Assembly: GCA_009760855.2 (NCBI GenBank)
Contig: WPIO01000007.1
Location: 4,552,001 to 4,616,000, forward strand
Direction of reading: 5' to 3'
DNA from: Cristatella mucedo
Taxonomy: Eukaryota; Bryozoa; Phylactolaemata; Cristatellidae
Length of the DNA stretch: 64,000 bases
Shown here: positions 27,853-50,990 of the stretch, one piece after another
Numbering within the stretch: position 1 is the first letter of the stretch
How the letters are laid out: each line of letters starts with the position of its first letter
Made by a program: the position numbers and the translations under genes
Notes under the pieces: model-generated
Databases searched by the model: none
What the model saw: only the letters and a program-made list of their open reading frames with translations
Told to the model about the DNA's origin: nothing

Positions 27853-30546
27853 TGTGTGTGTGTGTGCGAGTGGGAGGTGTGCGAATACACACATGTGCAC
27901 CTGTGTCTCTCTCCGAAATGCGTGCGTGCAGTGCATGCACACAAGAGCACATGAACAACTACAGGACATATTCTCCCATTAGAAATCTCAAAACTGGGGT
28001 ACACGCCATGTAGAACAGGGTAAAGCAAGTCCAGTAGATGGATTTCTTGACACAGTCATCCAAGCCAACCTAGCTTTTTAAAAACTGCTGGTCTGAAGAC
28101 CGCCAGGTCTTGCAGAATTATTTCTATGAAAACCAAACTGCTCAGTTGAAGACTCCATTCCTGTAAGGTCAACAGGCCTGTTTCTAGACAGGACAGACTA
28201 ATTGACTAATACACTTCTTTCCCAATATGACTGCGCTGCAAAAGCTCTGCAGATGTACCAAAATACGGTACCGTTCAAGTTAATTAACTGTTCGGTTACT
28301 AGAAAGATAGAATTCAAGAGTGGGCTTGATCGTGCTGAAGCCAATGAAGACGGTCAGACAAACAGCAGCTCGTGTTAGGCAGCAAAAGCACAGTAAGAAA
28401 GGCGGTAAACCTAAACTCGTAACAGCAGACGAAGTGACTACTCACGCTGAATGTAGTAAGATATAACAAATCATAGGAAGCTTTTTTGTTTGCCAAGTAT
28501 GCACATAATAATAACAATAATAAGACATTTACAGTGCCCTACAAGAACAAATCTCTTTCTAGGCACTAAAACATAAGTTGCAGAGGAAGCAAGTCACAAT
28601 CGTTAAGTGGTAACATGCACAGCGGCAGCACGCATTAGCACACACAGGACAATTCACACGGACTGAGAGAATGCTTTGAGACTAGGTTCGGCTGAAGCTT
28701 CTTTGAAAAGCCGCCGACAAAAAGAGAGTCACGATGTCAGTCAGGAGTGAATGAAGGCATTGAAAGCATACTAACTAATAGCAAGGTCTCTAAAGGATTT
28801 GAGATTGGTCAGAGGCACAGCCTAATGAGTTGATTCAGGAGAGTGGGCGGTACGTGGCCTAGCCTGAATAGAGATTAGTTCAGATAGGTAGGCTGGAGCA
28901 AAGACATAAAGGAGCCTAGAAGTGAGTGACAAAACCCTGAAGTCGATATGATGCTTGATGTCAAGCATGATGGTGAGAAGTTGTGCATTGATGGGCAATT
29001 GTGGAGTTCATCACAGACAAGCCTAGCTATAGAGTTTTGCAGCAACTATAAGTGCCATACTGAACAGAAAGAAGACCTGCAAGTAATGACCTACAGTCTA
29101 GTCGGGTGACATAAATGCATGGGTCGGCTTGGCCATGGTTTTCTCACCCAAACAGGTCCACATTTTGCAATGTTACCTAGCTGAAAGTAGGCAGATTTGA
29201 CCGTGGAGCTGATACGGTCATAATGGTATAAGGAAATGGATAAGGTAGCAAGACATAATCGGATGGGGCCAGCTGGGGCTTCAAACTCAGCCAATGACGC
29301 TAGACACGGAGCTCCTTTATAGTCAAACGCATCACTAGCTTCGCCAACTAATACAACTGAGTAGAATTTTAAAATGGACAATTTTTTGACGAATCATTGT
29401 TTGGGGTGGCCCAGCCAGTCACCTGATTTGAACCCCATAGACCGACTATGAAGTGATTTCGACCGACAGGCGGCTGAGGCCGGGTGTTCGGCCTACACCA
29501 GAAGGCGACCTTTTCAGTAAAACTCTGGCTCTGTGGAATGCGCTACCGCGGACGAGACATTACGGCAGCTGATGGCCTCTATGTCTGGCCAGAATGAATG
29601 GAGAGAATGAAAAAATGATGAAAAAGACGAACGAAGACCTATGTAGGTCATAAAGAATCGTGATGGGACTACGTCACACTAAACGCATACATGCCAACAG
29701 CACATGTGCTTGTTTTTGGGCTATCGGTAAGTATTTTCACACGCTGTGGCTGTGCACATCTTTAGTATGCCAGGCATCGTGCCAAAATCCTCTAAGTACC
29801 GAACAAATTTAACGCCACAGCATCAGCGACCACGATGGATTACGATTTTCTCACGCTCAGTGTACATCAAGAGCCGAGACTTGAAAGACATTTAGCTCCC
29901 CATATTGGGCTAAACAAATGTATTACAATTATTACTCACGAGGTTCGGGATCGAACGCAGTTCGACAGCAAACGTCTCGTGGGTTGCAAACAAACGGCAA
30001 ACGATGCCGGGCCACTCGCGAGGCAGAAATAGGTCAACACTAGCGCAAGGTCTTTTCCGTGCAAGTATAACAGCCTGACCGACGCAACTGGTCAGTGAAA
30101 GGGAAGTGGCAACTGCGCCTCACAAGCGCCGTTGGCAGCGTGCGAGGTACGAGAGCGTGCAAAAATAAGAAAGGATCATCGGTCGCCGAAGCATCGGCCG
30201 CCGTTCTAATCCCCTTACCGATATCCAAGCCAGTTGTGCCGCCTGCGGGTACTGAGCGGTCGGCATTCAGGAGGTCTTCTACCCACAGAATATAATTCAG
30301 GCGTTGAGGCACTGCAGGTATGAGGCGGTCTTCGGGTAGGTCGATATCGATGCCAAAGTCTTCCTTCAGTAGGGCGCACGACAACGCCTTGAGGCACCGA
30401 GGATTTGTAAAGTCAATCACGATGCGACCTTTCAGATCTTGGGAAACGGCGGCGCGAAAAGCCACGTTTTTCACAGCTAACTCCTTGAAATCAGGTTTCT
30501 TAAACTTGTATACATTGCGCGGGTGCATAAATTGATTAAGTGCCAT
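20590..30546 (-). CDS. METTL16: METTL16: U6 snRNA/MAT2A N6-adenosine methyltransferase
   Basis: Complete minus-strand gene. Coding exons in order: 30546-30219, 26163-26023, 24273-23970, 21684-21525, 21400-21257, 21138-20590. The total is 1626 bp (541 aa plus stop), close to the human protein (about 562 aa). All splice sites are GT-AG and phases agree (1, 1, 2, 0, 0). Landmarks: N-terminal RNA-binding module and class I methyltransferase fold with a SAM-binding DIGTG (108-112), catalytic NPPF (196-199, in FDFCMCNPPFF), FCQGRTMRWGVAWTF in exon 4, a basic ARKNTWTHQRRKRR helix (exon 6 start) and a C-terminal MRWLEGDNRELMHQIMQFL segment corresponding to the conserved C-terminal (VCR) region. The family methylates U6 snRNA and MAT2A hairpins, controlling SAM synthesis. 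The start is the first in-frame ATG. Introns contain LINE, SINE, Tc1 and microsatellite insertions. Confidence 0.95.
21257..21400 (-). CDS. METTL16: METTL16 coding exon 5
   Basis: 144 bp, phase 0 at both ends. Acceptor GATTGCAG, donor GAG|GTAAGC. It encodes KSLSEVQKKGQRDKKPFICL and an Asp/Ser-rich link to VARTVKALLDELE, aligning with the first C-terminal conserved region of METTL16 (KPITF and the following helix in vertebrates). Confidence 0.88.
21525..21684 (-). CDS. METTL16: METTL16 coding exon 4
   Basis: 160 bp, phase 2 to phase 0. Acceptor CCCATAG, donor CCC|GTGAGT. It encodes LYTSMLGKKASLGKVKAYL and FCQGRTMRWGVAWTFHPSY, the end of the methyltransferase fold. Confidence 0.95.
22065..22297 (-). 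repeat. LINE A RT C-terminal fragment joined to LINE B
   Basis: In minus sense it encodes CHITLLLTDLYWLPIKQLLDL and LLAPAYISQPLPSQARYQIA, the family A C-terminus. It joins the family B segment at about 22298 with no tail between, so one open frame (22378-22016) crosses the junction. Confidence 0.7.
22298..23700 (-). pseudogene. LINE family B RT pseudogene
   Basis: CR1/L2-like RT in minus sense: DPIPSSLRSSLVDKLSPAIT and ASLERGLVPKSFKSAIV at 23690-23460 (RT start), LFSIYTQPLGKVI near 23010, LKLNDDQTELQLIGHPKCVA near 22960, MLTHKACHSLAPSYLAELLH near 22500. The block between GKVI and LKLNDD, which should hold YADD, is deleted (around 22975). Stops and frameshifts elsewhere. The tail is missing because the element is cut at 22298. 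It lies in METTL16 intron 3, in the gene's orientation. Confidence 0.82.
23970..24273 (-). CDS. METTL16: METTL16 coding exon 3 (catalytic NPPF)
   Basis: 304 bp, phase 1 to phase 2. Acceptor GTGTTGCAG, donor AG|GTAGCG. It carries LFDFCMCNPPFF, the NPPF catalytic tetrapeptide that contacts the target adenine, then a Ser/Pro-rich loop, VERITEGGDEQFVKRMVDES and IALGRTIR. Confidence 0.95.
25025..25075 (-). repeat. SINE2 tail fragment
   Basis: TTAACAGCCTTGTTTGCACT and AGCGGCAGAAGAGCCTT match the SINE2 3' tail in minus orientation. It is in METTL16 intron 2. Confidence 0.5.
25092..25256 (+). repeat. SINE2 copy
   Basis: A-box-like GGCACACTAGGTAAGGC, B box GAGGTCATGGGTCCGAATCT, and tail GGCTCTTCTGTCGATATACA then GAAGCTGTTGAATCAGCT. 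Confidence 0.65.
25300..25365 (-). repeat. SINE2 head fragment, inverted next to previous copy
   Basis: GGATTCGAACCCACGACCAC (B box, minus) and GTGAAGAGTGAGCGCCTTAC (A box, minus). It stands tail-to-tail with the copy at 25092; its own tail is missing. Confidence 0.6.
25545..25680 (+). repeat. Degenerate SINE1 copy
   Basis: GGTTTGGCCCAGGGGCAAGG (A box), then a damaged B box (GGTCATGGGCAAGGGCC), GGTTAAGTCTATTAGAGTGC and a (TAA)n end. It lies in METTL16 intron 2. Confidence 0.5.
26023..26163 (-). CDS. METTL16: METTL16 coding exon 2
   Basis: 141 bp, phase 1 to phase 1. Acceptor GCGCAG, donor AG|GTAAGC. It completes the SAM-binding glycine motif (GTGSSCVYPLLGAKLKGWRF) and continues EMDATNFKYAVENV. 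Confidence 0.95.
26998..27163 (-). repeat. SINE1 copy with duplicated head segment
   Basis: In minus sense: CCTGGTTTGGCCCAGGGGTT, a repeated AAGGTGCTCACC block, B box GTAGGTTCGAGCCC, then a degraded GCGC tail. The GGTGAGCACCTT segment occurs twice (27097-27112 and 27127-27142), an internal duplication. Confidence 0.7.
27593..27679. repeat. (CA)n microsatellite
   Basis: About 43 perfect CA units in METTL16 intron 1. Confidence 0.97.
27779..27866. repeat. (GT)n microsatellite, inverted to the previous
   Basis: About 44 GT units with one GTGG slip at 27841-27847. With the CA tract 100 bp to its left it forms a long inverted repeat. Confidence 0.97.
28505..29235 (-). pseudogene. LINE family A 3' fragment
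   Basis: The 3' tail is at 28505-28580 ((ATAATA)n, then TCTCTTTCTAGGCACT). The 3' UTR has GGTAACATGCACAGCGGCAG. Decayed RT C-terminus extends to about 29235 (AGTAGGCAGATTTGACCGTG is the STVKSAYF region). Inside METTL16 intron 1. Confidence 0.75.
29375..29605 (+). pseudogene. Tc1/mariner transposase C-terminal remnant
   Basis: In plus frame: WPSQSPDLNPIDRL, then a stop, SDFDRQAAEAG, and after a frame change LRQLMASMSGQNEW. WPxQSPDLNPIxxLW is the hallmark around the last catalytic acidic residue of Tc1/mariner transposases. The DD part upstream is gone and stops are present. It is in METTL16 intron 1. Confidence 0.75.
30219..30546 (-). CDS. METTL16: METTL16 coding exon 1
   Basis: 328 bp from ATG (MALNQFMHPRNVYKFKKPDF) to donor CG|GTAAGG (GT at 30218-30217), ending at phase 1. 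It carries the N-terminal RNA-binding module: RIVIDFTNPRCLKALSCALL, KEDFGIDIDLPEDRLIPAVP and QRLNYILWVEDLL, all strongly METTL16-like. Confidence 0.96.
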
Positions 30547-30661
30547 AGTTATCCGAGTCGCTACTAAGCTGAAGCTAATAGACGAACGTGTTCTACGCAG
30601 ACGGCGACGAGCCCGCGGCCGAAGCACACGCGGATAACTCAACCTTCACATTAAAGGTGAT

Positions 30662-32200: not shown

Positions 32201-32975
32201 GATGTGTTGCTTCCAGTTTACATTTGGTTCAGACATGGCTTGCGTATTCTTTTTTATTTTAAGGGAAAGTTTAATAGTCAAAACTTCCGATCCCATTTCC
32301 AGCATTTTTGTATTTTGAATGATACCATAAACAAATATTCAATTATAAGATCAATTTTATATATATTTTCTTGACCTAGCCCCCTGAGCTGATTTGACTA
32401 TAGGCTTTGAGCCCTACGAGAGTAGTTGCACGTCGTGTCCGATGTTGAACACCTGTAACAATATGTCGCTGCCAAATATACTTCTCTTCTCTATGGATGT
32501 ACATGTTTATGTTAGGGAATGAGTTCTCTACATTGCTGCCGGGATTTTGTTTCCCAATTATAGCAACGTTTTTACCAAGAAAATCTGTTGCAACTGCGCT
32601 GGGACTTTGACATGCACATGGCCTCCAAGAGCCTGGCCAATGGCGCTCTGAATCATTAAAGGGGTTACATTACGGATGAGCATAATGTAAATGCATTAAA
32701 TATGTCTCCGAATGAGCTGCAGCCACTTCCATCGTCAGATTAACACTAAAAAGAAGACATCGTAAAGTTTTCGTATTTCCATTTTCCAATATCGTGACAA
32801 AAGTTATTCCCTTGCCGAGACTACTGCGGCTTCGAATAGCCATCTCAGATGCAGTCGCAGTTAATACATCACACTGATTGTGCATTGATTTTACTGGAGT
32901 AGCGCAAAATACAAGCAATACAAATTTTATAAATATATTTGTGCCCTATAGTGCAAGCTCTGCAATGATTTAAAC

Positions 32976-33166
32976 CAGCGGTTCCCAACCTGTGGGTCGC
33001 GACCCCTTTGGGGGCCAACCGACCCTTTCACAGCGGGGTCACCTAAGACCATTGGAAAACATGCATTTCCACATTTCGCACACAATAATTTTATGGTTGG
33101 GGGTTGCCACAACACACGAGGAACTGTATTAAAGGGTCGTGGCATTAGGAAGGTTGAGAACCACTG
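32976..33166. mobile_element. SPIN-like non-autonomous hAT element (MITE)
   Basis: 191 bp with short terminal inverted repeats: the left end CAGCGGTTCCCAACCT and the right end (reverse complement) CAGTGGTTCTCAACCT agree at 14 of 16 bases. It is flanked by an 8-bp target duplication, ATTTAAAC (32968-32975) and ATTTAAAG (33167-33174), 7 of 8 identical, as hAT elements make. Internal blocks GTGGGTCGCGACCCCTTTGG, ATAATTTTATGGTTGGGGGT, GAGGAACTGTATTAAAGGGT and TTAGGAAGGTTGAGAACC match what I remember of the SPIN (Space Invader) MITE family, which has been reported as horizontally transferred among tetrapods and some invertebrates. It has no coding capacity. Confidence 0.87.
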
Positions 33167-33174
33167 ATTTAAAG

Positions 33175-39927: not shown

Positions 39928-41126
39928 TAATAATAATAATCATAAATTTGATATAGCGCCCTTAGAGAACTCAATCTCTTTCTAGGCACTGTACATGTGC
40001 TGCAAAGAAAGCGTGATCGAATGGTTAGTGGTAGCATGCTCAATATACAACAAGAATAACATGATTAGGGGTGACATGCACAGTGTCAGTGCGCATAATC
40101 ACATACAGTTGAATTGCAGGGAATCACTAAATGATGTGATAAATAAATACGAAATTAGTTTCTTTTTAATGTGGTCAAGTCGTGGGATATTGTGATGCCA
40201 GTCGGAAGTGTGTTTTTGGCTTTGGGGGCATACGAACTAAAGACGCGGTCTCCAAAAGATTTGAGTTTTTGAAGAGGTATAAATAAACGATTAGATTATG
40301 AAAAGCAGGTGGTACGATGCTTAGTCTGATGGGGGAGTAGGTCTGATAGGTAGGCTAGAGCCAAAGAATGAAGGGACCTAAAAGTGGGTGACAGAACCTT
40401 GAAGTCATTGCGTGCCTTGACTGGGAGCCAGTGCAGGTTGGCAAAAAGTGGTATGATGTGGCAGCTGCGATGCTTATGACAGAAAAGCCTAGCTGCAGAG
40501 TTTTGCACCAGCTGTAAGTGCCTGAATGCACAGATCGGTAGACCAGCAAGCAATGAGTTACAGAAGTCAAGACGTGAGGTCACAAATGCATAACTCAATT
40601 TAGACGCGATATACCTGTCTTAACAAGCCCGAATTTCAGCAAGCAATATTATGTAGCTAAAAGTAGGCAGACATGACTGTGGAGCTGGTGTGGTCATCTA
40701 ATGATACGTCCCTTTGGAATATAGCACCTAGATTTTGTGCAGATTCAACAGGAGATATGCTGGCAGAGTCGATTTCGAGTGTTAGCCTTTCCAATTTCTG
40801 AATCCCATTTGAATTGTCCATAACTAGTAATTTGTTTTTATTCTCATTCAATTTAAGATTGTTTTCTGCCATCCTTGTGCGGATGTCATCAATGAATGCA
40901 GCAAGTGAGTTTAGAGAATTTGAGGTGCTCGAAGGCTGGGAGGGATCAAAGCAAAGGTACAACTGAGTGTCATCTGCATAGAAGTGAAAGCCTAGATTGT
41001 GCCTGGCAATCACATCGGCAAGAGGGAGAGTATAAACCATGAAAATAACGGGACCGAGCATGGAGCCCTGAGGTACTCCATATTGCATTGGTACCTCAGA
41101 TGACCTTGGCCCATTCCTATCAATAG
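39928..41126 (-). pseudogene. LINE family A copy with intact YADD segment
   Basis: 3' tail at 39928-40000 (TAATAATAATCATAAATTTG, TATAGCGCCCTTAGAGAACT). RT frames: 40598-40296 (C-terminus) and 41196-40657, which holds YGVPQGSMLGPVIFMVY, LGFHFYADDTQLYLCF, NNLKLNENKNKLLVM and IDSASISPVESAQNLG. The catalytic YADD is intact here, but the 5' half is missing and frames break between the two segments. Confidence 0.85.
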
Positions 41127-41194
41127 CCATGAGTTTTCTGCATGTTTTTGCAAGCTTAAATTTGCATAACAATAATGATGAATTTGATAACAAC

Positions 41195-42443
41195 AATAAT
41201 AATTATAACAATTGACCATTCGTGTAGCACCCGAAGAGTACTTAATCTCTATCCAGGCACCTAATAACTTGCTGCAAAAGAGTCAGTACCCAAGGATTAG
41301 TGTCATGCGGGTATCAAGCATGCACAAGCAAACGGCTAACATGTTTAGGTAAGCATGCTAAAGTGAACACGAAGAAACCCACTGCTTCATCAAAAATTTC
41401 AATCGAGAACTAGGGTCGGCAAATTGGCCATATGCTGATGAGTACGTGGTACAAGAGCACAGCATAGGAGCAAGCAGTTTGGATAGGCAGGTTGGATAGG
41501 CTGGAGCCAAAGAATGGAGTGACCTAAAAGTGAGCGACAAAACCCTGAAGTCAATCCGTTGCTTGACTGGTAGCCAGTGCAGGTCGGTGAGAAGTGGTGT
41601 GATGTGGCAACTGCGACGCTCACGACAGACAAGCCTAGCTGCAGAGTTTTGCACCAGCTGTAAGCGCCTGATTGCACATGCCGGTAGGCCAGCAAGCAGT
41701 GAGTTACAGAAGTCAAGACGGGATGTCACAAATGTATGGACCAACTTAGATGTCTAATCCCTATCTAAACAAGCCCTAATTTTAGCAATGTTATGTATCT
41801 GAAATTAGGCAGACTTGACTGTGGAGCTGATGTGGTCGTCGAACGAAATGTCACTTTGGAACATGACACCAAGATTTCGTTCAGATTCAACAGGAGATAT
41901 GCTGGCAGAGCCGATTTTGTATGTTAGCCTTTCCAATTTCTGAATCACACTTGGTTTTGCCATCACTAGCAAGTTAGTTTTATCATCATTTAATATGAAA
42001 AAAATTGCTGCCATCCATGTGCGAATGTCATCAATACATACAGCAGGGGAGTTGAGAGAATTCGAGGTGCTCGAAGGATGGGAGAGATCAAAGCAAAGAT
42101 ACAACTGAGTGTCATCTGCATAGAAGTGGAAGCCTAGATTGTGCTTGGCAATCAAATTGGCAAGATGGAGAGTATAAACCGTGAAAAGAACCGAACCTAG
42201 CACGGAGCCCCGAGGTGCCCCATATTTCAGAGGTACCTCGGATGATCTTTGTCCATTCACGTCACTACTCTGGAGTCTCCTACTGAGATAGGACCTGGAC
42301 CATTGCAGAGCAGTGCCAGTGATGCCCAGGCGAGATTAAAGGTGCTCAAGAAGGACTTGATGATCGGTTGTATCAAAAGCTACCGAAATATTGATCAAAA
42401 GAAGCAGAGATACTCTACCTAAATCTGCTTTCCTAAGAAGGGC
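41195..42443 (-). pseudogene. LINE family A copy, second of a same-orientation pair
   Basis: Tail near 41195-41270 (degraded: AGCACCCGAAGAGTACTTAA, CTCTATCCAGGCACC). RT frames at 41744-41358 ([35 protein letters not shown]) and 42260-41805 (YGAPRGSVLGSVLFTVY, LGFHFYADDTQLYLCF). Sequence between 41345 and 41480 is rearranged relative to other copies. The 5' end is truncated at about 42443. Confidence 0.85.
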
Positions 42444-44883: not shown

Positions 44884-45083
44884 GCCCTAAACCCTAAAAA
44901 CCAAACCCTAAAACCTTAAGAATTAAACCCTAAAGCCCTACACCATAAACTCTAAGCCCTAAACCCTAAAACCCTACACCATAAACTCTAAACTCTAAAC
45001 CCTAAACCCTAAAACCCTAAACCCTAAAACCCTAAACCCTAAAACCCTAAACCCTAAAAACCCTAAACAATAAACCCTAAAAA
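44884..45083. repeat. Interstitial (CCCTAAA)n telomere-like array
   Basis: Degenerate array of CCCTAAA and ACCCTAAA units (7 and 8 bp) with variants such as CACCATAAACTCTAA, about 200 bp. The opposite strand reads TTTAGGG, the plant/algal type, not the animal TTAGGG. Confidence 0.85.
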
Positions 45084-49070: not shown

Positions 49071-50612
49071 TCAGGACGCACACCTGTATTGCCCAAGCAG
49101 TATCTTGCGAAAAGCTTTGCGGAAATCTGGGCTGAAAATAGTGTAGATTATAGGGTTAAGTGCACTGTTGCAGTAGCCGAGCCAGTTGACCAGGTCGAGC
49201 ACGGTCTCGGGCACCTGGCAGCCGCCGCGGCAGAGCGGCATCAGAGCGGCGAACACGAAGAAGGGCAGCCAGCAGACGACGAAGATGCCAGTGATGACGA
49301 GGAGCGTGCGCAAGGCGCGCCGCTCTCGCTTCACGGCCACCTTCTCGCTGCGACGCGCCGCCGGATCGTCCGCGCCGGCGCCGCTGCCGCCGCTACCGGC
49401 GGCGGCGGCGGCGGACGAATTGCCGAGGCGGCGGCCGCCTGCGGGCGCGCGGCTGATGAGTGGCGAGCTCACGAGCTCGCGAGTCGACGAGCCGACGCCT
49501 GCTCGGCGGCGACGGGGCTTCCTCTGCGGCGGCTTCCTCTTGGACGGCGCGCGCTCAGCCGCCTCCGCCGCGGCGGTAGGAGCGACGACTTCACAGTTGT
49601 CGAGCGGCTGGACGTCTTCGCAGCGAAACGTCGTGGCCGTCGCTGGCTCGCGCGGCCGCGGCTGGAGCAGCTTCGTCGTCGGCGCCGCCACCGCCGCAGC
49701 GCGGCCGCAGTCGCCGCCGCCGTTCGGATGACTCGGCGTCGCCCGCGACGCCTTCGCACTGTCGGCGGCTGCTGCGGCTGCTGCGGCTGCGGCCGCGGCG
49801 GGGTTCGGCTCCGAGGCACGACTGTGCAGCCGACTCAGCAGCCGCTCGCGAACGCGCCGACGCACGAGAAAAAAGATCTTCCCGTAGATCGCTATGATGA
49901 CGAGCAGAGGCGCGTAGAAGGCGAGCACGGTCGAGTAGATCGTGTAGCCGATGTCCTGGCTGATGCGGCACACGCCGTCGTCGCCGTACTCGTTGCGCCA
50001 CTCGAACAGCGGCGGGATGCAGACGCACGCCGCCACTCCCCAGGCGAGCGTGACCATGGCGCAGAAGACCAGCGACTGGCGCTTGCCAACCCTCTGCGCA
50101 TACTCGACGTCGGTGACCGTCCAGTAGCGGTCGACGGCGATGGCGACCAGGTGCAGAATGGACGCCGTGCAGAAGAGGACGTCGACGAACACGAAGAAGT
50201 CGCACATGGCCTGACCAAACGGCCAGGCGACGGTGATGAGCTTGACGGCGGTGAGCGGCATCACCAGGACGGCGACGAGCAGGTCGGCGACGGCGAGCGA
50301 GCCGATCAGACGGTTGGCCAGCGTCTTGTGAAGGACCTTCTCGCGAGCGACGGCCAGCACGACGAACACGTTGCCGACGACGGTGCAGAGAATGATGACG
50401 CACAGCAGTATGGCGACGGTCGCGCGGTACGTCAAGTCGCTGGCGACGGCGGATGCGAGATCGCCGCCTTTGCCGGCGCTGCTGCAGTTAGGCTCCGATC
50501 GGGAGCAGTTCAGCCACTGCACGGCGGCGGTGGCTGCGGCGGCGCCGCCGCCGCCGGTCGACGAAACTTCGAGCGAGCCGCCCGCGGTCGTTTGATTGCC
50601 ACGCGCTTCCAT
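49071..50612 (-). CDS. 5-HT1-like serotonin receptor (rhodopsin-family GPCR), intronless
   Basis: One open frame of 513 aa from ATG 50612 (MEARGNQTTAGG) to TGA at 49071; it is the first in-frame ATG. Seven helices: N1.50 (N81), D2.50 (D110), Cys137/Cys215 disulfide pair, amine-binding Asp (D144 in FVDVLFCTASILHL), DRY 161-163, W191, TM5 YTIYSTVLAFYAP (S227, T228, P235), CWLPFF 447-452, NWLGYCNSALNPIIY (Y480, NPIIY 486-490). The DxxxC...DRYW, GYTIYST and NWLGYxNS patterns are those of 5-HT1-type (also 5-HT7-like) receptors, usually Gi-coupled. NxS/T sites lie at the N-terminus. The third intracellular loop is long (about 180 aa) with a 12-Ala run, basic and Ser/Pro-rich blocks. The C-tail is short, with a Cys three residues from the end. 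Ligand and G protein are inferred from family. Confidence 0.93.
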   Translation of the reverse strand: MEARGNQTTAGGSLEVSSTGGGGAAAATAAVQWLNCSRSEPNCSSAGKGGDLASAVASDLTYRATVAILLCVIILCTVVGNVFVVLAVAREKVLHKTLANRLIGSLAVADLLVAVLVMPLTAVKLITVAWPFGQAMCDFFVFVDVLFCTASILHLVAIAVDRYWTVTDVEYAQRVGKRQSLVFCAMVTLAWGVAACVCIPPLFEWRNEYGDDGVCRISQDIGYTIYSTVLAFYAPLLVIIAIYGKIFFLVRRRVRERLLSRLHSRASEPNPAAAAAAAAAAAADSAKASRATPSHPNGGGDCGRAAAVAAPTTKLLQPRPREPATATTFRCEDVQPLDNCEVVAPTAAAEAAERAPSKRKPPQRKPRRRRAGVGSSTRELVSSPLISRAPAGGRRLGNSSAAAAAGSGGSGAGADDPAARRSEKVAVKRERRALRTLLVITGIFVVCWLPFFVFAALMPLCRGGCQVPETVLDLVNWLGYCNSALNPIIYTIFSPDFRKAFRKILLGQYRCAS

Positions 50613-50990
50613 CGGCGTTCTTCTATCGCACTCGAAACGGGCCGAACGTAGCCGAAATCTAGCTGCAGTCGGCCGCCAGCACGACCTTCGATCATGGTCC
50701 TGGCGAAAGAGGACGATTAAACGTGTCAAATGCACGCGCCGCTACGGCTAACTCGCTTGCTTAAGCATGTCGCTTTGAAAGACGGGGAGCGAGAGAGAGG
50801 GAGGAGGAGGAGCGAAGGAGTCGCCACGAGTCGCTAGGCGACGCCACAAGCCCGCGTAATTGCGCCCGACGATCAATCGAGGTCACGAATAGCGTATTAA
50901 GTGCACGCTCGGCGAGTAGAGAGCAGCGTGCCATACCGGTCTCACTTGGCTCGCGTGCACGAGTCTACTCGCGCTGTTTATGACCTCCGC
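50613..50990. other. Region upstream of the GPCR start
   Basis: GC-rich just upstream of the ATG, with a GA-rich run at 50788-50815. Presumed 5' UTR and promoter; no TATA box is obvious. Confidence 0.35.

What the first reader, a model, noticed from the sequence alone, without database searches (positions are those of the whole stretch)
32968..33174. SPIN-like hAT MITE: likely product of horizontal transfer between animal phyla
The 191-bp element has hAT-type ends (14 of 16 bases inverted), an 8-bp target duplication with one mismatch (ATTTAAAC/ATTTAAAG), and internal blocks I recognise as the SPIN (Space Invader) non-autonomous family. SPIN is known from established work as patchily distributed in tetrapods and a few invertebrates through horizontal transfer. 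Finding it among invertebrate LINEs and SINEs would add a host or identify a known recipient lineage.
Basis: partly seen in the sequence, partly recalled or inferred. Interest (0 to 1): 0.85.

Follow-up and report, generated by a model that had tools for sequence, protein, structure and literature searches.

The report
SPIN transposon in an invertebrate genome
This 191-base stretch looks like one of many inactive copies of SPIN, a "jumping gene" family known for having crossed between distantly related animals, here in an unnamed invertebrate genome that also keeps broken remains of the full-length parent element.

Summary
32976-33166 is a 191-bp hAT-type MITE with 14 of 16 inverted end bases and an 8-bp target duplication (7 of 8). 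It is a family: a 34-base internal piece of its consensus occurs 790 times in the 572-Mb genome at up to 3 mismatches (reversed control 0), and the 40 best matches, window copy included, lie on 27 contigs, so contamination is excluded. Target sites follow nnnTAnnn, the Buster-type rule. Majority consensus arms from this genome agree with recalled SPIN_NA at 194 of 197 and 109 of 111 positions. Three near full-length elements (3.0-3.3 kb) share the ends and carry frame-broken Buster-type transposase genes. This is SPIN: a MITE and its degenerate parent. Horizontal transfer best explains near-identical non-coding sequence, but my vertebrate reference was memory, not a record. The host uses the invertebrate mitochondrial code; its phylum is not settled. 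SPIN in invertebrates is already published (Rhodnius; SPIN-like in the snail Biomphalaria), so this is a further member, not a new kind.

The parts
32976..33166 (+). SPIN non-autonomous element (MITE), 191 bp; 11 substitutions and 4 gap columns from the 187-bp family consensus
32976..32991 (+). left terminal inverted repeat, CAGCGGTTCCCAACCT
33151..33166 (-). right terminal inverted repeat, read inward CAGTGGTTCTCAACCT; 14 of 16 match the left
32968..32975 (.). left target-site duplication ATTTAAAC (TA at positions 4-5)
33167..33174 (.). right target-site duplication ATTTAAAG, 7 of 8 identical to the left
30040..30642 (-). context: ORF holding the first recognised coding exon of host METTL16 (U6 snRNA m6A methyltransferase); the MITE lies about 2.3 kb upstream of this ORF
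   Evidence: (PF05971)

Best explanation
The element is a non-autonomous copy of SPIN, a hAT transposon of the Buster group. At 191 bp it cannot hold a transposase gene. It carries the SPIN ends and subterminal blocks, which the SPIN transposase, made by full-length copies elsewhere in the genome, would have recognised; the copy was pasted in at a TA-centred 8-bp site, which was duplicated. Shown here: ends, target duplications, a large family, full-length relatives with the same ends and a broken Buster-type transposase gene. Inferred: mobilisation in trans; arrival of SPIN in this lineage by horizontal transfer; present inactivity.
For: 790 places for a MITE-consensus 34-mer, control 0; 40 scored copies, window copy included, on 27 contigs. 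Of 35 MITE copies examined for flanks 28 have at least 6 of 8 duplicated bases, and of these 28 TA stands at positions 4-5 in 24 (left) and 26 (right); PMC3499496 (passages seen) puts SPIN in the Buster family and gives nnnTAnnn for TcBuster. Recalled SPIN 38-mer (16 bases of it absent from the window): 32 places, control 0; recalled 33-mer (absent from the window): 43 places, 3 of them exact, control 0. Arm consensus from 18 and 17 copies against recalled SPIN_NA: 194/197 and 109/111. Using only L126-L131, 6 rows: 196/199 and 128/130. MITE consensus ends against recalled: 85/85 and 80/82. L126 (3110 bp, perfect TSD ATCTAAAT), L127 (3288), L128 (2956): SPIN ends plus tblastn matches to recalled TcBuster transposase of 29-41% in segments of 47 or more residues, best E 2e-63, over several frames.
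Against: Twelve of the 18 copies behind the arm consensus were picked because they match the recalled 38-mer, which biases that stretch; outside it the agreement is 156 of 159. Seven of 35 MITE copies lack a clear target duplication; L074 and L075, with identical flanks and ends, are probably one insertion counted twice. Random pairing of flanks gives 6 or more matches in 202 of 1,943 pairs, because the target consensus is itself biased, so single duplications are weak evidence. L128 has no clear duplication (2 of 8 by eye). Pfam did not recognise the two transposase pieces tested, and a PDB search with one gave nothing.
Confidence: 0.92

Rival explanations
1. A resident hAT MITE of another family (hAT-Charlie or another Buster) that merely shares SPIN-like ends.
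For: The genome has other hAT families, e.g. a 2.7-kb Buster-type element with ends CAGGGGTGTCCAAC (8 of the 10 TcBuster matches that I fetched) and one with BED and dimerisation domains.
Against: Against the MITE consensus, the fetched loci of those families gave no alignment better than E 0.26, and the 2.7-kb family has different ends. Recalled SPIN interior occurs in copies with the same ends as the MITE.
Confidence: 0.05
2. SPIN was inherited vertically from an ancient bilaterian ancestor, not transferred.
For: Residence is not very recent: 18 long copies lie 3.0-12.8% from consensus in the right arm. Distribution among relatives could not be examined.
Against: The non-coding consensus agrees with recalled tetrapod SPIN_NA at 303 of 308 positions; unselected sequence would not stay alignable since the protostome-vertebrate split (established knowledge).
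Confidence: 0.05
3. Contamination or misassembly with vertebrate DNA.
For: None found.
Against: 40 scored copies on 27 contigs; of 35 examined, 28 have a duplication of 6 or more of 8 bases, and the flanks differ between copies except L074/L075. The window contig is 12.8 Mb long with host genes. The common MITE has an interior unlike the recalled tetrapod form.
Confidence: 0.01

Closest known systems
SPIN_NA / SPIN (Space Invader) of tetrapods (Pace 2008; not held; sequence recalled)
   Same: Ends, subterminal blocks and, in the long copies, nearly all of the aligned non-coding interior: 194/197 and 109/111 positions.
   Different: The abundant 187-bp MITE here has a short interior that the recalled form lacks.
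SPIN of Rhodnius prolixus (PMC11614815, passages seen)
   Same: SPIN in an invertebrate, attributed there to transfer from vertebrates.
   Different: Mitochondrial code and gene content do not name our host, and copy sequences could not be compared.
SPIN-like hAT of the snail Biomphalaria glabrata, about 1,000 copies (PMC5440852, passage seen)
   Same: Hundreds of SPIN-like copies in an invertebrate; that paper reports no intact transposases in the assembly.
   Different: Here three near full-length, broken elements were seen; sequences could not be compared; the host is not identified.
TcBuster and the Buster family of hAT transposons (PMC3499496, passages seen)
   Same: 8-bp nnnTAnnn target duplications; SPIN remnants encode pieces 29-41% like recalled TcBuster.
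   Different: The genes here are broken; activity untested.

Membership tests
SPIN (hAT, Buster group) | SPIN terminal inverted repeats CAGYGGTTCTCAACC | tested here: met
   that this motif is SPIN's is recalled
SPIN (hAT, Buster group) | SPIN-specific subterminal and internal sequence, beyond the ends | tested here: met
   two recalled pieces present, controls 0; 303 of 308; outside the piece used for picking: 156 of 159 right, 109 of 111 left; the reference is recalled, not a record
SPIN (hAT, Buster group) | 8-bp target duplication with central TA | tested here: met
   28 of 35 copies with 6 or more of 8; TA in 24 (left) and 26 (right) of these 28; long copies 9 of 11, TA in 7 and 8 of 9
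SPIN (hAT, Buster group) | cognate autonomous element encoding a Buster-type transposase | tested here: met
   3 of 6 fetched loci near full length with broken genes; a 192-aa piece found strongly at five places, the query's own included
SPIN (hAT, Buster group) | alignment to published SPIN consensuses | not testable with these tools
   original papers not held; no copy in held collections
Horizontally transferred SPIN | identity to distant hosts far above neutral, and patchy distribution | tested here: inconclusive
   high identity only against recalled sequence; distribution among relatives not testable
Ac group of hAT | target duplication nTnnnnAn (recalled) | tested here: not met
   T at 2 and A at 7 together in 12 of 28 on each side, against 24 and 26 of 28 for TA at 4-5

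The most novel reading that the evidence does not exclude
The host belongs to an invertebrate group in which SPIN has not been reported, and its long-resident SPIN (three near full-length copies 9.2-11.2% from the right-arm consensus) marks a reservoir lineage from which, or alongside which, tetrapods acquired SPIN, and which expanded a short MITE of its own.
Probability: 0.2. Interest if true: 0.55.

Novelty: new member of a known kind. Interest (0 to 1): 0.36.

Why it matters
SPIN is a classic case of a transposon that crossed animal phyla. A host with at least 790 MITE matches and full-length, though broken, relatives would give a datable recipient (or reservoir) outside vertebrates, useful for working out the route and direction of transfer. 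The kind of event is already established.

Tried and rejected
Searches for an outside copy: exact SPIN pieces in viral contigs and genome contigs, blastn in phages and plasmids: no match. Pieces of the family consensus in the paper library: 0 papers. Original SPIN papers by id: not held. Assembly size and contig number in papers did not name the host. Literature searches for SPIN hosts. Rfam and tRNA scans of the window: nothing.

First candidates for the autonomous element were wrong: the hAT dimerisation matches include a family with a BED finger that I take from memory for Ac-like, and 8 of the 10 TcBuster matches that I fetched (of 75 scored) belong to a 2.7-kb family with other ends. The other two, L089 and L090, were not resolved. 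The SPIN parent was found only by following the interior of L116.

Age: the 34 copies fetched first were the best matches to the window copy, so their 3.2-7.6% divergence is biased low. Twenty of the 96 exact 28-mer places were then fetched, mostly ones that the listing did not show, so probably biased high; the 15 of 20 with long enough alignments differ by 8.5% at non-CpG sites outside the 28-mer. No date is claimed, and it is not shown that the MITE is younger than the long copies.

Circularity check: 12 of the 18 copies behind the right-arm consensus were picked with recalled letters, so I recomputed it without them: 196 of 199 right and 128 of 130 left from L126-L131. These six came from the L116 search, but three (L126-L128) were singled out because a place of the recalled 33-mer lay 2.5-3 kb away.

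Host: mitochondrial gene order and the COX1 tail look mollusc-like to me from memory only; not used as a result.

Full report
What is there. The sequence at 32976-33166 is a 191-bp element with terminal inverted repeats (14 of 16; the only placement reaching 14 among 63,809 in the window) between ATTTAAAC and ATTTAAAG. It is the only copy in the window and lies about 2.3 kb upstream of the ORF 30040-30642 (minus strand), which holds an exon of METTL16 (Pfam Methyltransf_10; best solved structures named U6 snRNA adenine-43-N6 methyltransferase).

It is a genome-wide family. The window is part of a 12.8-Mb contig of a 572,011,866-bp, 688-contig assembly. The element gave 40 scored matches, its own place included (2,243 first-look candidates); the other 39 are 88-91% identical; together they lie on 27 contigs. 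A 34-mer of the MITE consensus occurs 790 times at up to 3 mismatches, and a left-arm 28-mer 96 times exactly; the reversed-pattern controls gave 0. From 34 fetched copies plus the window copy I derived a 187-bp consensus; the 34 differ from it by 3.2-7.6%, the window copy by 5.9% plus 4 gap columns. Six of the 11 window substitutions are CpG transitions. The 34 were the best matches to the window, so the figure is biased low; 15 long enough of 20 others gave 8.5% outside CpG sites, probably biased high.

Target sites. Of 35 MITE copies, 28 have at least 6 of 8 duplicated flanking bases, and among these 28 TA stands at positions 4-5 in 24 left and 26 right flanks. Of 11 long copies 9 have such duplications, with TA in 7 left and 8 right flanks. 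Randomly paired flanks reach 6 of 8 in 202 of 1,943 cases. Two of the 35 (L074, L075) look like one duplicated insertion. The pattern is the nnnTAnnn reported for TcBuster; the same paper places SPIN in the Buster family (PMC3499496, passages). The Ac-type pattern (T2 with A7) was met in 12 of 28 on each side.

Is it SPIN? No SPIN record could be consulted: the original papers are not held and the held collections that I searched gave no copy. I therefore used what I remember of tetrapod SPIN_NA as a prediction. A 33-mer that is absent from the window was found at 43 places (3 exact), and a 38-mer whose first 16 bases are absent from the window at 32 places, both at up to 3 mismatches with controls of 0. 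I fetched 12 of the 32 places; 11 could be traced from end to end, 189-482 bp, several of them colinear with the recalled form; the twelfth (L119) showed only the right arm. Majority consensus of the right arm from 18 copies agrees with the recalled sequence at 194 of 197 positions (7 gap columns), and of the left arm from 17 copies at 109 of 111 (19 gap columns). Because 12 of the 18 were picked with recalled letters, I repeated this with the six others: 196 of 199 and 128 of 130. The MITE consensus agrees at 85 of 85 left and 80 of 82 right positions. The match to genomic copies shows that the recalled letters are a real sequence; that they are tetrapod SPIN remains recall.

The parent element. 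Using the interior of L116, 20 places were found, its own included. Six were fetched: L126 (3,110 bp), L127 (3,288) and L128 (2,956) are near full length with SPIN ends; they are 82-85% alike over most of their length and 77% in one 498-bp left stretch. L126 has a perfect target duplication, L127 has 7 of 8 and L128 none that is clear (flanks printed, counted by eye). The three carry pieces of a Buster-type transposase gene over several frames (recalled TcBuster as query, best E 2e-63); L130 keeps a 47-residue piece and L129 and L131 none. A search with the open 192-aa piece of L126 gave 13 matching rows; the strong ones lie at five places, the query's own included (C133, C676, C111, C658, C332), with open frames of 68-192 aa. 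Pfam recognised neither of two pieces and the PDB search of one gave nothing. So the family has MITEs, longer deletion forms and a few degenerate parents; I found no intact source, though the search was not exhaustive.

How it works. The MITE was most likely cut and pasted by SPIN transposase supplied in trans, as for other hAT MITEs; the matching ends of the full-length copies support this. Mobilisation itself is inferred. The divergence of the copies and the broken genes suggest that it no longer moves.

Horizontal transfer. The assembly's mitochondrial contig reads best with the invertebrate code: in COX1, AGR as serine, ATA as methionine and AAA as lysine at positions that I recall as conserved. 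So the host is not a vertebrate, and contamination is excluded by the spread of copies. Near-identity of non-coding sequence to tetrapod SPIN is not expected from vertical descent. I hold transfer as likely (about 0.85), its direction as unknown. Invertebrate hosts are already in print: Rhodnius (PMC11614815, passages) and a SPIN-like family of about 1,000 copies in Biomphalaria (PMC5440852, passage). Also in print: 385 SPIN elements in the painted turtle (PMC4054807, passage) and transfers into mammals dated 15-46 million years (PMC5857283, passage). Whether the present host is new cannot be told.

Verdict. It is a good example of a known phenomenon.

Noticed in passing
L065:2123-4045 (minus) and other matches: A hAT family with BED finger and dimerisation domain: 16 of 138 listed matches lie in open frames of 635-642 aa, 15 of the 16 with the same Pfam score. 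Looks recently active.
   Followed up: partly
L083-L088, L091, L092: A 2.7-kb Buster-type hAT family with ends CAGGGGTGTCCAAC, 93-96% alike. Of the 75 scored TcBuster matches in the genome, 70 contain stops.
   Followed up: partly
L063 and L064 (contig C688, 21,008 bp): Mitochondrial contig, 44% G+C over the 20,000 bases read, with two identical 2.1-kb direct repeats and an identical 1.8-kb inverted copy. ND2 lies on the opposite strand from the other genes that I recognised by eye. Real or an assembly artefact.
   Followed up: partly
window 49071-50735 (minus): Single-ORF amine receptor (Pfam 7tm_1), best solved structure a 5-hydroxytryptamine receptor 1A (E 1e-80), with long Ala, Arg and Gly runs between its matched parts.
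   Followed up: partly
window 44885-45081: Degenerate (CCCTAAA)n array, telomere-like in sequence, inside the contig.
   Followed up: no
window 40657-41196, 41358-41744 and 41805-42260 (minus): Apparent non-LTR retrotransposon fragments; the first matches a reverse transcriptase domain (RVT_1), the second no Pfam family, the third was not scanned.
   Followed up: partly
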